37,305 nucleotides of DNA from a virus: the IMG/VR virus record IMGVR_UViG_3300035698_008027, positions 1 to 37,305 of that record; one strand, 5' to 3'. Made by a program: the position numbers and the translations under genes. Of the stretch, positions 27,505-34,560 are shown one piece after another. Position 1 is the stretch's first letter; every line of letters begins with the position of its first letter. A model generated the notes under the pieces. That model saw nothing but the letters and a program-made list of their open reading frames with translations. It did not search any database and had not been told where the DNA came from.

Positions 27505-28170
27505 ATGATAGATACTAAGAACGTTAATATAGTTAGCATAAAACAATCGGTATGTACTGATTGGCTTTTGGATAAACATTATCTAAAAAGAATGCCAACT
27601 ATATCGAAATCTTTCGGTCTTTTTATAAATAATCACATTGAAGGAGTTTGTGTTTTCTCTCCAGCCATCGCTAGATTTGATTTAGAAGATTCACCATACG
27701 AATTAAGTAGGCTGGTTACAAACGAATTAAATCAAAAAAACATTACCTCGTTCTTTTTAGCCGGATGCCTGAATCTAATTAAAGACCCGCATGTTGTATC
27801 GTATGCTGATCAGAATTGGGGTCATCACGGATATATATACCAAGCAACTAATTGGATGTATACCGGTATGTCATCAAAAGAAAAGATAATATATGTCAAT
27901 GGTGAAGAAACTCACCGTAGGACAATATTTGCCAGATACGGTACATCATCTATACCCGCGCTGATTGGTATGGGATATACAATTACATTCAAAGAACAAG
28001 AAGGCAAACATAGATACTTTCAGGTGACGGGAAATAAGCATCAAAAAAAGAAATTAAGAAAAGAATTAATGGAAAAATATGATGTGTTACCGTATCCAAA
28101 GGGGCAAAATAGTAGATATGATGCCGGAGATAATATTGTACGTGAATCGTATATAAACAAGTTTTTTTAA
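27505..28170 (+). CDS. Mom-like DNA-modification protein, copy 1
   Basis: A 221-residue protein of the Mom type, GNAT-fold proteins; phage Mu Mom turns adenine in DNA into a methylcarbamoyl form that resists restriction. Conserved parts: His25-Tyr26 in 'LLDKHYLKRMP', 'YELSRLV', 'ASYAD'-type motif 'SYADQNWGHHGYIYQATNW' with Asp102 and His107, then 'RYGTSSIPAL' and 'KHRYFQVTGNKHQKKKLRK'. It is the first of three tandem relatives (with 28172-28762 and 28759-29550) that align through His-Tyr, L-x-RL and SYAD. Two bases separate it from the RNR gene. The chemistry performed here is unknown; family membership is by motif. Confidence 0.7.
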   Translation: MIDTKNVNIVSIKQSVCTDWLLDKHYLKRMPTISKSFGLFINNHIEGVCVFSPAIARFDLEDSPYELSRLVTNELNQKNITSFFLAGCLNLIKDPHVVSYADQNWGHHGYIYQATNWMYTGMSSKEKIIYVNGEETHRRTIFARYGTSSIPALIGMGYTITFKEQEGKHRYFQVTGNKHQKKKLRKELMEKYDVLPYPKGQNSRYDAGDNIVRESYINKFF

Positions 28171-30720: not shown

Positions 30721-31001
30721 ATATAGGAAAACGAAACTCAGGAAAAACAACTCATTTGATACGTAAATCGGCAGCTACTTCCGATGTAATTGTATGTAGA
30801 TGTTCACGGACAGCTAGGTTAATTAAAGACCGCGCGAAAGCGATGGGGTACAATATACCTAATCCCATATCATATGACAATTTTATTCGTAAGGATTGGT
30901 TGGGTGGTGATAGAAACATGAAATTTATGATAGATGATGCACATGATTTACTTAGCTATATGGGAAACTACCGCATCACTGAAATAACAATGTCTGTTTA
31001 A
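30711..31001 (+). CDS. Small P-loop NTPase-like protein
   Basis: A 96-residue protein. Walker A is GKRNSGKTT (6-14) and a Walker B-like strand is 'NMKFMIDDAHDLLSYM'; between them 'AKAMGYNIPNPISYDNFI' matches small phage ATP-binding proteins of unknown role. It overlaps the glycosyltransferase by ten bases and the gp43 start by one (TAATG), so it is coupled to both. It is too small for a full motor domain and may be a nucleotide kinase-like or regulatory subunit. Confidence 0.65.
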   Translation: MQINIGKRNSGKTTHLIRKSAATSDVIVCRCSRTARLIKDRAKAMGYNIPNPISYDNFIRKDWLGGDRNMKFMIDDAHDLLSYMGNYRITEITMSV

Positions 31002-32944
31002 TGTATCAGAATGTGCACTTTGATAGGAAGACCAATACTATACATTATTGGGATGACGAGCTTGGTTACAAGCAAGAAAAATACCATAAGTATGCATATG
31101 TACCGGATGCTAATGGAGCATTTGAATCTATCTATGGGGAGAAATTAAGGAAAATTGGAGAATGGGATAAATATACCACTAGTAAATTACACGAAAGCGA
31201 TATAAATCCAATCATTCGTTTCTTAATTGATACGTATGGTGACAGTGATGAAATTTCCACCGGCCATACTGTAGTTACGTTTGATATTGAAGTTGAAATG
31301 GTAACGGGGTTACCTGACTTAACTGATGCTGATAATGCAATCACATCAATAGCGCTACATGATTCTACAACAGATGATTATTATGTATATGTGATATCAG
31401 ATTTATCAATAGATAAGAAGATTAAGAAAGCCATTGTACAATCTTTTCCAGATGAAGATAGCTTACTACTTGCATTCCTTAATAAATGGGAACAAATAAA
31501 TCCCACCATTATAACTGGGTGGAACATAGATTATTTTGATATTACATATCTCTATAACAGAATCAAGACTGTATTTTCGGAAGGTGTTGCTAATAGGTTG
31601 TCACCGATTGGTATAGTTGATTGGAATGAAAGACGCGGCCGTTATTTAATAGCAGGTGTATCATCCCTTGATTATCTTGCTCTATATAAAAACTTCACAT
31701 ATAGTGAACTAGCAAATTATCGATTGGATACTATTGCAAAGGAAGTATTGGGTAGGGGTAAAATAGAATACGTTGGAAGCCTAGATGAACTATTCAGAGA
31801 TGACATTGAAACGTTTGTAGAATATAACTTGGTAGACGTTGAACTTGTGGTAGATATGGACCGTAAGCTACAATTCATTGACCTTGCTCGTTCAATTACT
31901 CATGCCGGTCACACTCAATATGAAGATTTTCTTTTTTCATCTAAATGGCTGGAAGGTGCTATATTAACATTCCTTAGACGGAATAATAGAATTGCAACAA
32001 ATTCACCACCCCGTTTGTCATTAGTATTAAGTAGAAAGCATCCCGTTGGAACCACGAAGCTTAATATGGAATCTAACATACTGACAAACGTACCTGGAAC
32101 AGGCCGATTAAAAATAAGTAAATCTACATCCAGCTATATTATTGTATCGTATGATTCATATGATGGATCAACATTTACATTATCAAAGCCACTAGAAAAA
32201 GAAGCTGGTACTGATTATAAGGTGGCACTTGATTTTGTAGGAGCATATGTAAAGGAACCTATTACCGGATTATATAAATGGGTATATGACTTGGACTTAA
32301 CATCATTGTATCCAAGTATTATTATGAGCCTAAATATTAGTCCAGAAACTAAGATGGGCAAGGTTCATAATTTCACTACGGAACGATATATATCCGATGA
32401 AATAGATGAATACATTATTGAAGATAGTCACGGCGACTATTATCCTGCTATTAACAAAGCTAAATTCCAAGAGCTATTATCAGAATCTAACTATTCGGTA
32501 TCATCCAATGGTGTATTGTATAGACAGGATAAAGTTGGTGTCATTGCAGAAATCTTAGATGTTTGGTTTAAAAAACGAACAGAATATACAAAGTTAATGA
32601 AATCACACGGTAAGGCCGGAGCCACCGATTTGTATAAATTCTACGATAGAAGGCAGCATACCCAAAAAATCATGCTTAATAGTTTATATGGCTGTCTTGG
32701 GCTTGCCACGTTCAGATTTTATGACCTTGATAATGCTGCAGCTGTTACAGAGTGTGGTCAAACCATTATTAAAACTACGGAAAAGATTGCCAACGCATAC
32801 TACAATGAACACATAAATCCACATAAACTCACACTAGAAAATGGCAAAGAATTAATATTTGGTGTAAATGAATTTGTTACGTTAATGGATGGTAGTAAGA
32901 AGCAAGTTGGTGAATTAACGGAAGATGATGATATTGTTGTCTAG
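31001..32944 (+). CDS. 43: DNA polymerase family B (gp43), N-terminal fragment ending in an intein-like tail
   Basis: A 647-residue fragment. The 3'-5' exonuclease motifs are 'TFDIEVE' (Asp95, Glu97), 'TGWNIDYFDITYLYN' and 'YNLVDVELV'. Palm motif A is 'DLTSLYPSI' (Asp432), and motif B is 'KIMLNSLYGCLG' (Lys556, Asn560). The palm continues to 'EKIANAYYNEHIN' (about 606). The last 40 residues, from His608 ('HKLTLENGKELIFGVNEFVT' then LMDGSKKQVGELTEDDDIVV), do not look like polymerase; they resemble the second half of an N-terminal intein segment (K-I-T-L-E-D-G-K-E...L..GD pattern). Motif C is absent and lies in the separate downstream piece. A stop (32942-32944) is followed by seven more codons (YSIQKVE) and another stop. 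Confidence 0.85.
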   Translation: MYQNVHFDRKTNTIHYWDDELGYKQEKYHKYAYVPDANGAFESIYGEKLRKIGEWDKYTTSKLHESDINPIIRFLIDTYGDSDEISTGHTVVTFDIEVEMVTGLPDLTDADNAITSIALHDSTTDDYYVYVISDLSIDKKIKKAIVQSFPDEDSLLLAFLNKWEQINPTIITGWNIDYFDITYLYNRIKTVFSEGVANRLSPIGIVDWNERRGRYLIAGVSSLDYLALYKNFTYSELANYRLDTIAKEVLGRGKIEYVGSLDELFRDDIETFVEYNLVDVELVVDMDRKLQFIDLARSITHAGHTQYEDFLFSSKWLEGAILTFLRRNNRIATNSPPRLSLVLSRKHPVGTTKLNMESNILTNVPGTGRLKISKSTSSYIIVSYDSYDGSTFTLSKPLEKEAGTDYKVALDFVGAYVKEPITGLYKWVYDLDLTSLYPSIIMSLNISPETKMGKVHNFTTERYISDEIDEYIIEDSHGDYYPAINKAKFQELLSESNYSVSSNGVLYRQDKVGVIAEILDVWFKKRTEYTKLMKSHGKAGATDLYKFYDRRQHTQKIMLNSLYGCLGLATFRFYDLDNAAAVTECGQTIIKTTEKIANAYYNEHINPHKLTLENGKELIFGVNEFVTLMDGSKKQVGELTEDDDIVV

Positions 32945-33714
32945 TACTCCATACAGAAAGTTGAATAATCATATACTTATTATAGGAGATATGATGATGA
33001 AAATATGTACGAAATTGTCCCACTTGCGGCATCGAAATAACAATTAAAACTAAATGGTTTCATGAAAAAGCTATAGCTGAAAATAAGAAATGTTTGAGTT
33101 GTTCTAAGACAGGTAAATTATTTAGTGATAAACATAAAGAAAGTCTAAGTAAGAATCACGCTGATGTTCGTGGTGATAAAAATCCATTTAAAGGAAAACG
33201 ACATAGCAAGGATAGTATTGATTCAATGATAGAAACTAGAAATAAACACCCGACTTGGAAGAAAAATGCAACCGCCGCGATGAAGAAAATACGATATAAG
33301 TATTGGACTTCGGTTGGTAAGAATCCGATGGATAATCCCAAAAGTGTTAGGAAACTAAGATTAAAGAGAATTGACGAATTGATATCCAAGCATGGTATTT
33401 CTCCAAACTATAATCCATCATCAATTTCCATCATTGAGGCCAAAGCAAAAGAACTTGATATAGTAGACCTCCAACACGCCGAAAATGGCGGAGAATTTTA
33501 TATTAAAGAACTTGGCTACTGGGTTGATGGATATAGTAAGGAAAAAAATATCGTAATTGAATATTACGAATCATTCCATACTAATCGAATTGAAAAGGAT
33601 AAAATAAGACAAAACGAAATAACAACCCATCTAGGGTGTGAATTTATTATTATTTATGAAAATCAAAAAAATTGAAAAAGTCCACGTAGATTATAACATT
33701 TACGTGGACACTTA
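32822..33714 (+). mobile_element. Insertion splitting gp43: endonuclease gene with intein-like flanks
   Basis: About 0.9 kb separates gp43 motifs B and C. It comprises an N-intein-like coding stretch (32822-32965, with one internal stop), a spacer with a ribosome site (AGGAG at 32985-32989), a homing endonuclease frame (32991-33675) and a 19-codon C-intein-like frame (33656-33715). Splits of this type, with split inteins around a free-standing endonuclease, are known in marine phage genes (gp41, NrdA, NrdJ, IMPDH). Here the first half of the N-intein and the end of the C-intein seem to be missing, so the element looks degraded. Confidence 0.55.
32991..33675 (+). pseudogene. NUMOD-type homing endonuclease with nuclease-like C terminus, frameshifted near its start
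   Basis: AGGAG (32985-32989) leads to ATG codons at 32991, 32994 and 32997. From there translation stops after 17 codons. In the +1 frame from 33004 the sequence continues as a zinc ribbon ('NCPTCGIE' with 'KCLSCSKTGK') and then NUMOD3-like repeats ('FSDKHKESLSKNHADVRGD', 'NPFKGKRHSKDSIDSM'). The C terminus 'LQHAENGGEFYIKELGYWVD' plus 'KNIVIEYYESFH' is the phage endonuclease core. Removing one A from the run at 33000-33003 gives one continuous frame. The frame open without repair (33094-33675, TTG start) lacks most of the zinc ribbon. It overlaps the C-intein-like frame. It is either decay or a homopolymer error. Confidence 0.7.
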
Positions 33715-33715
33715 A
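33656..33715 (+). other. 19-codon frame resembling the start of a C-intein
   Basis: ATG 33656 opens M-K-I-K-K-I-E-K-V-H-V-D-Y-N-I-Y-V-D-T before TAA (33713-33715). Split C-inteins of marine phages start this way (a short basic K-I-x-x-I-E segment, then an x-D-I-x-V strand), directly after the endonuclease gene. The remaining block (H-x-F-x-A-N...H-N) is missing. An alternative reading: N-I-Y-V-D-T is the polymerase's own strand before D-S, with five extra bases at the join. Confidence 0.4.
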
Positions 33716-33792
33716 CTGACTCAGTATTCTACGAATCAACGCCGCTTGTAAAAACACGTAATCCAGATATTGATGAAAACAATGATGATCAA

Positions 33793-34560
33793 ATGATACC
33801 TGCCATTCTATCAGTAGCAGGTGAAATTCAAAATCATATTAACTCGACATATGATGTTATGGCCACTCGAATGTTTAATATTGAATCACATCGATTTAAT
33901 ATCAAACAAGAAACAATTGCTAAGAGCGCATTCTGGGTTGCAAAGAAACGATATGCTCAGTGGATTATTAATGATAAGGGGGTTAACTGTGATAAACTTG
34001 ATGTAAAGGGGCTAGATGTACGTAGGTCATCATTTCCACCATACTTCAAAACTATTATGTCTGAGGTACTGATGGACATACTTAAAGTTGAAAATAAGGT
34101 GGCAGTGGATAACAAAATTCTGGCATACAGAAAAGATATATCTAACCAACCGATTACATCATTGGGACGTAATTCAGGTGTAAAGGGTATAAGTAAATAC
34201 ACTTATAAAGACCAATTATTAGGTGCGTTTACCAAAGGTACACCTGCTCACGTCAAATCATGTATAGCCCATAATCAACTACTTACACATTATAATCTTA
34301 CTACTAAGTATGAACCGATTAAGGACGGTGATAAAATCAAGTGGGTATATTTACTACATAATAATCTTGGATTGGAATCAGTTGCCTTCACAGGCTACAA
34401 AGATTCCGATGAAATCCTAAATATAATCAATACATACATTGATTATGATCAGATATGGAATAGTGAAATCGGTAAGAAGTTGGAACAATTCTATACGTCA
34501 CTTGGATGGGAACTACCAAATGAAAATTTGGAAACCGCATCACAATTCTTTTCATTTTAA
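33793..34560 (+). CDS. 43: DNA polymerase family B (gp43), C-terminal fragment
   Basis: The frame is open from 33697 and reads 'HLTDSVFYESTPLVKTRNPD' before the first usable start, ATG 33793, which gives 255 residues. Palm motif C is therefore only partly present (T-D-S at 33715-33723) and lies upstream of any start codon. The rest is the typical end of gp43: the 'FWVAKKRYAQWI' block (KKRY, contact with the primer template), 'GLDVRRSSFPPYFKTIMSEV' and the C-terminal clamp-binding end 'ASQFFSF'. The missing start and motif imply that the piece must be made by frameshift, by protein or RNA joining, or not in active form. The finding entry discusses this. Confidence 0.75.
   Translation: MIPAILSVAGEIQNHINSTYDVMATRMFNIESHRFNIKQETIAKSAFWVAKKRYAQWIINDKGVNCDKLDVKGLDVRRSSFPPYFKTIMSEVLMDILKVENKVAVDNKILAYRKDISNQPITSLGRNSGVKGISKYTYKDQLLGAFTKGTPAHVKSCIAHNQLLTHYNLTTKYEPIKDGDKIKWVYLLHNNLGLESVAFTGYKDSDEILNIINTYIDYDQIWNSEIGKKLEQFYTSLGWELPNENLETASQFFSF

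What the first reader, a model, noticed from the sequence alone, without database searches (positions are those of the whole stretch)
31001..34560. gp43 fractured by an endonuclease with intein-like flanks
The family-B polymerase is interrupted between motifs B and C. The N-terminal piece ends in about 40 residues resembling the later part of an N-intein ('KLTLENGKEL', then a L-T-E-D-D-D-I end). An endonuclease gene follows, then a short frame resembling the start of a C-intein, then the C-terminal piece with motif C. Free-standing split-intein plus endonuclease loci are established for marine gp41, NrdA, NrdJ and IMPDH genes, and gp43 fission by endonucleases is known in some T4-like phages. 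A gp43 with both, at the catalytic motif, would be a new or decayed case.
Basis: partly seen in the sequence, partly recalled or inferred. Interest (0 to 1): 0.82.

Follow-up and report, generated by a model that had tools for sequence, protein, structure and literature searches.

The report
Split phage polymerase with ribosome hop
In this phage a homing-endonuclease cassette has cut the DNA polymerase gene in two and left a stop codon plus a 5-base frame break inside the catalytic motif; related phages show this break is conserved behind an RNA hairpin, which suggests that ribosomes hop over it, as in the famous T4 gene 60.

Summary
The fracture is real. The N piece (31001-32944) ends in a 42-aa tail homologous to the middle of a split N-intein, an endonuclease follows, then the C piece. 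Four other diverged lineages share all of this (TGA in one); the hairpin covaries; 122 of 122 distinct unsplit relatives read DTDS in frame, and the 39 folded lack such a hairpin. Near-identical phages with and without the cassette exist, so it is mobile and the polymerases look functional, not decayed. It is not an active split intein (catalytic N half, TxxH and C-terminal HN absent). Best reading: a mobile HEG cassette like T4 gene 39-mobA-60, in which the ribosome bypasses a gap at a catalytic metal motif. T4 gp39 and its split relatives carry a tail that matches this one, so both cassettes may descend from fractured-gene split inteins that lost splicing. The hop itself is predicted, not shown.

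The parts
31001..32944 (+). gp43 N piece: exonuclease and polymerase up to motif B, 647 aa
   Evidence: Pfam DNA_pol_B_exo1 / DNA_pol_B, PHROG 262
32816..32941 (+). 42-aa tail homologous to the middle of a split N-intein, absent from unsplit relatives
   Evidence: predicted as four short strands, pLDDT about 65-77
33019..33675 (+). homing endonuclease frame (zinc-finger-like CxxC start, NUMOD3-like repeat, EDxHD/Vsr-like end); no in-frame ATG: the apparent start ATG 32997 is one base out of frame
33656..33715 (+). C piece ORF1: MKIKKIEKVHVDYNIYVDT, stop TAA 33713-33715; overlaps the endonuclease end
33680..33709 (+). RNA stem-loop, 12 bp with 6-nt loop, ending at the base before the take-off codon
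   Evidence: z -4.5; covariation; absent in unsplit relatives
33710..33712 (+). take-off codon ACT (Thr of motif C)
33713..33717 (+). 5-nt coding gap TAACT: stop codon TAA, landing codon ACT 33715-33717
33718..34560 (+). C piece ORF2: motif C second half DS... to the end of gp43
   Evidence: PHROG 262 E 3e-48, 58-65% identity to the nearest relatives

Best explanation
A mobile homing-endonuclease cassette has split gp43 of a T4-like phage, in the manner of T4 gene 39-mobA-gene 60. The N piece is made with a 42-aa tail derived from the middle of a split intein. The C piece starts at ATG 33656 (intein-derived head), is read through the first half of motif C (YVDT), and meets a stop. The 12-bp hairpin just behind the take-off codon refolds as the ribosome stalls on the stop; the Thr peptidyl-tRNA lets go of ACT 33710 and re-pairs at ACT 33715, and decoding resumes at GAC, giving the exact wild-type motif YVDTDS. 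The two pieces then assemble without a peptide bond, possibly helped by tail and head. At DNA level the gap and changed bases would spoil the endonuclease's target in its own gene. Shown: architecture, conservation, hairpin, empty and occupied alleles. Inferred: the hop, the assembly, and protection from cleavage.
For: Five lineages share tail, ORF1, hairpin, take-off ACN, stop (TAA, or TGA in L024), landing ACN at +5. Hairpin: mean -20.9 kcal/mol against -4.8 in 39 unsplit relatives; 60/60 cells paired, 5 of 12 pairs changed on both sides, slid controls 20-43%; synonymous codons chosen for pairing, P 0.01-0.02 in each of four lineages. DTDS in 122/122 distinct unsplit relatives, and no ATG/GTG/TTG ahead of DS in the resumed frame in four of five lineages. 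Purifying selection on both pieces. Occupied versus empty alleles L092/L072: flanks 93 and 97% identical with a short conversion tract; cassette carriers interleave with non-carriers in the tree; the endonuclease type swaps within the same tail and flank. Only one gp43 in a 174,750-base contig. Independent L102: unsplit gp43 with ACG-TGA, 7-nt gap and hairpin at the same codon. T4 parallels; mechanism in PMC5009743 and PMC11194080.
Against: No protein or ribosome data. Take-off and landing codons match exactly only in the window; in the others they are synonymous (ACC/ACT, ACG/ACA, ACG/ACT). No strong take-off stem-loop in the window, unlike T4, and the nascent-peptide requirement cannot be tested. 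The window's endonuclease start is out of frame. All carriers of this gp43 cassette are metagenomic contigs, and only five lineages are known.
Confidence: 0.75

Rival explanations
1. Programmed -1 frameshift rather than a 5-nt hop: the ribosome shifts at the stop and adds two residues (DTLTDS or DTVTDS) to motif C.
For: Same frame change (+5 and -1 lead to the same frame); a stop and a 5' structure can stimulate shifting.
Against: No slippery site (the Thr tRNA on ACN cannot re-pair one base back), two extra residues would fall inside a motif that is DTDS in 122/122 unsplit relatives, and the landing triplet is a Thr codon in every one of the five lineages.
Confidence: 0.1
2. Decayed split intein or pseudogene: the stop, the frame break and the missing intein parts are damage, and the polymerase is dead or made elsewhere.
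For: Intein catalytic parts are gone; the window's endonuclease start is out of frame.
Against: Identical break, spacing and covarying hairpin in five lineages; both pieces under purifying selection; no second gp43 in the 174,750-base contig.
Confidence: 0.06
3. RNA-level repair: a self-splicing intron or processing removes the insert or the 5 nt before translation.
For: Group I introns occur in other gp43 genes (PMC2993671); a strong hairpin lies at the site.
Against: No Rfam family in the window or in L024, L043, L049, L071, L100; the tail is read in frame with the N piece and is protein-conserved, odd for intron sequence.
Confidence: 0.05
4. Active split intein (gp41-1 type fractured gene) that trans-splices gp43.
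For: Tail and head are homologous to N-intein middle and C-intein start.
Against: No Cys/Ser at the N junction, no N-terminal half, GxNx in place of TxxH, no C-terminal HN, and splicing cannot cross a stop.
Confidence: 0.02

Closest known systems
T4 gene 39 - mobA - gene 60 with its 50-nt translational bypass (and split topoisomerase genes of S16, Aes012, AC4, PM2, Stupor)
   Same: Essential replication gene split by a HEG; N piece ends in an extra tail of the same family (hhalign 85%, E 6e-6); C piece starts with a short basic head; stop directly after the take-off codon; 5' stem-loop; bypass sits on a catalytic metal motif (toprim TDADxDG there, polB DTDS here).
   Different: Different gene; gap 5 nt instead of 50 (17 predicted in the Aes012 record); no strong take-off stem-loop in the window; HEG of EDxHD-like or GIY-YIG-like type instead of HNH.
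Fractured genes with split inteins and free-standing endonuclease (gp41, NrdA, NrdJ, IMPDH; here a DNA ligase, L097/L098)
   Same: N-intein middle, C-intein start, and EDxHD-like endonuclease in the same order.
   Different: Both catalytic ends of the intein are missing and polymerase sequence is joined straight to the remnants.
Split gp43A/gp43B of Aeromonas phages 44RR and 25 (with seg43 HEG in 25)
   Same: gp43 made as two pieces; the phage 25 pieces co-purify and are active (PMC2988022).
   Different: 44RR is split at residue 499, before motif B; no bypass described there as far as I know.
Aes123 PolB1 split intein of Aeromonas phages (PMC11923092)
   Same: Split intein in a phage PolB gene.
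   Different: That one splices; this one lacks the catalytic parts.

Membership tests
Programmed translational bypass (T4 gene 60 type) | Stop codon directly 3' of the take-off codon | tested here: met
   TAA in four lineages, TGA in L024
[quoted passage not shown]
   ACT/ACT in the window, synonymous Thr codons in the others; product equals DTDS of 122/122 unsplit relatives
Programmed translational bypass (T4 gene 60 type) | 5' stem-loop just upstream of take-off | tested here: met
Programmed translational bypass (T4 gene 60 type) | Take-off stem-loop enclosing the take-off codon | tested here: inconclusive
   Only a weak 4-bp helix in the window; a 5-bp one around the stop in L102
Programmed translational bypass (T4 gene 60 type) | Nascent-peptide signal and a bypassed product | not testable with these tools
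   Needs translation assays or proteomics
HEG cassette splitting a gene (mobA/gene 60 type) | Mobile: cassette present or absent in near-identical genomes | tested here: met
   L092 versus L072, L094 versus L076
Split intein | Homology to Hint / N-intein | tested here: met
Split intein | Cys or Ser at the N junction and an N-terminal half | tested here: not met
   Polymerase is joined straight to the intein middle (e.g. IGE then IYDITLENGK) in all lineages
Split intein | Block B TxxH and C-terminal HN before Cys/Ser/Thr | tested here: not met
   GVNE / GGNx; no HN before TDS
Group I or II intron | Conserved catalytic RNA | tested here: not met
   No Rfam match
EDxHD / Vsr-like homing endonuclease | Family profile match | tested here: inconclusive
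   Only NUMOD3 weakly; resemblance of the C-terminal half by eye to the endonucleases in L043 and L049

The most novel reading that the evidence does not exclude
The T4 gene 60 bypass and the gp43 bypass are two branches of one mobile-element class: split inteins of HEG-fractured genes that lost protein splicing, kept their middle as a pairing device for the two pieces, and replaced splicing by ribosome bypass at the catalytic metal motif.
Probability: 0.45. Interest if true: 0.93.

Novelty: new variant of a known kind. Interest (0 to 1): 0.86.

Why it matters
T4 gene 60 has been the textbook case of efficient ribosome bypassing, and a 2010 review asked whether other genes of T4-related phages use it (PMC3014915). 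Here is a second gene, the replicative DNA polymerase, with a minimal 5-nt hop at its active site, conserved in several lineages and with natural cassette-free alleles as controls. The minimal gap and covarying 5' hairpin make the idea that a hairpin pulls the mRNA directly testable. The shared tail gives a possible origin for the T4 cassette that I did not find described in the papers searched.

Tried and rejected
Active split intein: rejected on missing catalytic parts. Sequencing or assembly error: rejected because the same break recurs in independent contigs and lineages. Group I/II intron: no Rfam hit in the window or five relatives. Independent start of the C piece: no ATG/GTG/TTG before DS in the resumed frame in four of five lineages (GTG only in L024). 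PDB search with the tail gave only a weak in-register gp41-1 match (E 0.38) and unrelated hits. Scan with the LR756508 C piece and pattern search of genome contigs found nothing. BLASTP of the T4 tail against the window tail alone found no alignment; only profiles show the link. AlphaFold of the N piece was of low overall confidence (mean 60).

Full report
OBSERVATION. The window encodes a family-B polymerase in pieces. The N piece (31001-32944) is polymerase up to about residue 605 and then has a 42-residue tail, NPHKLTLENGKELIFGVNEFVTLMDGSKKQVGELTEDDDIVV. An endonuclease frame follows, open from about 33000 to 33675. ATG 33656 opens MKIKKIEKVHVDYNIYVDT and a TAA. The rest of the polymerase resumes at 33718 (DSVFYES...) in another frame. 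Eighty IMG/VR relatives of the C piece show the ordinary gene: nearly all are unsplit and read ...IGKEDDYNVYTDTDSVFY.... So VDYNIYVDT is polymerase, not C-intein, and motif C is interrupted between YVDT and DS by TAACT.

NOT AN ACCIDENT. The same arrangement is present in L024 (GIY-YIG-like insert), L043/L045, L049/L051/L052/L071 (EDxHD-like insert) and L100/L101, which is only 41-43% identical and has lost most of its endonuclease. In each, the N piece ends in the tail, ORF1 ends in YxDT, a stop follows (TAA; TGA in L024), and DS resumes exactly 5 nt after the take-off codon, preceded by a second Thr codon. Of 181 loci classified, 157 read through motif C in frame, and all 122 distinct ones have DTDS.

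HAIRPIN. Directly 5' of the take-off codon lies a stem-loop, 12 bp with a 6-nt loop (z -4.5; longer stem in L100). Split lineages average -20.9 kcal/mol; 39 unsplit relatives average -4.8, none below -8.8. On five diverged sequences all 60 cells pair, five of twelve pairs change on both sides, and sliding the partner drops pairing to 20-43%. With the protein held fixed, random synonymous codons give full pairing with P 0.01-0.02 in each of four lineages.

FUNCTIONAL AND MOBILE. Both pieces evolve under purifying selection. The tree mixes carriers and non-carriers: L024 is sister to unsplit L076, and L052/L071 lie among unsplit L064, L072, L073 and L058. L092 (carrier) and L072 (empty) are 92.7% and 97.0% identical in the two flanks and differ by the cassette plus a short conversion tract in the first codons after DS. 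L092 and L093 share flank and tail but carry different endonuclease types. The tail is more alike than the flanks between L090 and L092 (synonymous differences 0.10 against 0.39). A 174,750-base carrier contig has one gp43 only. If the break were not recoded, these phages would have no polymerase (inference).

MECHANISM. A ribosome that starts at ATG 33656 reads YVDT and faces TAA. Hopping from ACT 33710 to ACT 33715 gives exactly YVDTDS. Forward hops of +5 are on record (Weiss 1987, cited in PMC5009743). In T4 gene 60 the current model is that pairing of a 5' stem-loop pulls the mRNA and starts the bypass (PMC5009743), and stem-loops folding behind the ribosome favour forward sliding (PMC11194080). 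Here the stem abuts the take-off codon and could not be fully formed while that codon is in the P site, so its refolding could drive a short forward move (inference). A -1 shift would insert two residues in an invariant motif and has no slippery site. L102 adds an independent, unsplit case: YIDT, TGA, a 7-nt gap (landing GCG, imperfect match), a strong 5' hairpin, and a small stem-loop over the stop; it is a single contig.

INTEIN ORIGIN OF TAIL AND HEAD. The tail search also found L097/L098, a DNA ligase fractured by a complete split intein plus endonuclease. Its N-intein ends WYEITLENGKTL...LTDNDELL, 47% identical to the tail of L071 (E 2e-8), and its C-intein starts LKIKSIKK, like MKIKTIKK. 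The gp43 cassette keeps only the middle of such an intein: no N-terminal half, no TxxH, no HN. LR756508.1 (484 kb) has the same fission and tail, with a complete cis-intein at the position of the hop.

LINK TO T4. T4 gp39 is followed by mobA and by gene 60, whose ORF1 ends TDADHDG-stop at the toprim metal motif. gp39 itself ends in about 44 residues that unsplit relatives up to 98.5% identical lack (their matches stop at residue 472). Split topoisomerase genes of S16, Aes012 (its record annotates a predicted 17-nt bypass), AC4, PM2 and Stupor have the same tail, and a Campylobacter phage gp39 has one too. Profiles of the topoisomerase tails and gp43 tails align over 30 columns (hhalign 85%, E 6e-6); direct comparison with the intein profile is weak (17.5%). 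So the two cassettes look alike in architecture and probably in descent; the intein origin of the T4 tail is a hypothesis.

LIMITS. No expression data. Codon match is exact only in the window. The endonuclease in the window has no in-frame ATG. Profile A8 contains sequences recalled from memory.

Noticed in passing
L192:3778-5328 (T4 AF158101), minus strand: T4 gp39 ends in a 44-aa tail absent from unsplit relatives and alignable with the gp43 tails; S16, Aes012, AC4, PM2, Stupor and Campylobacter CJLB-14 have versions of it.
   Followed up: partly
L102:4840-5040 (IMG/VR 3300009374_000591): Unsplit gp43 with stop TGA after YIDT and DS resuming after 7 nt, behind a strong hairpin: a second, independent bypass candidate.
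   Followed up: partly
L102:604-3234: Two adjacent frames ending and starting like a split intein (NHKVLVLDDGKV... and VEDNHQYILENGIVSHN|TTS): probably another fractured gene.
   Followed up: no
L082 and L084 (LR756508.1): Jumbo phage gp43 with an intein at motif B, the same fission tail, a C piece about 4 kb downstream, and a second intein at motif C where the others have the hop.
   Followed up: partly
L097/L098:5293-8003: DNA ligase fractured by a complete split intein with endonuclease in between.
   Followed up: partly
L105:4175-5004: gp43 split between motifs B and C by another insert, without tail or hop; C piece starts MQNVIISDTDS.
   Followed up: no
window 32991-33093: Endonuclease frame lacks an in-frame ATG; the ATG cluster with a good ribosome site is one base out of frame, so the gene may be inactive or mis-assembled.
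   Followed up: no
window 27505-28170: Mom-like DNA modification protein (PHROG 1384, E 4e-44).
   Followed up: no
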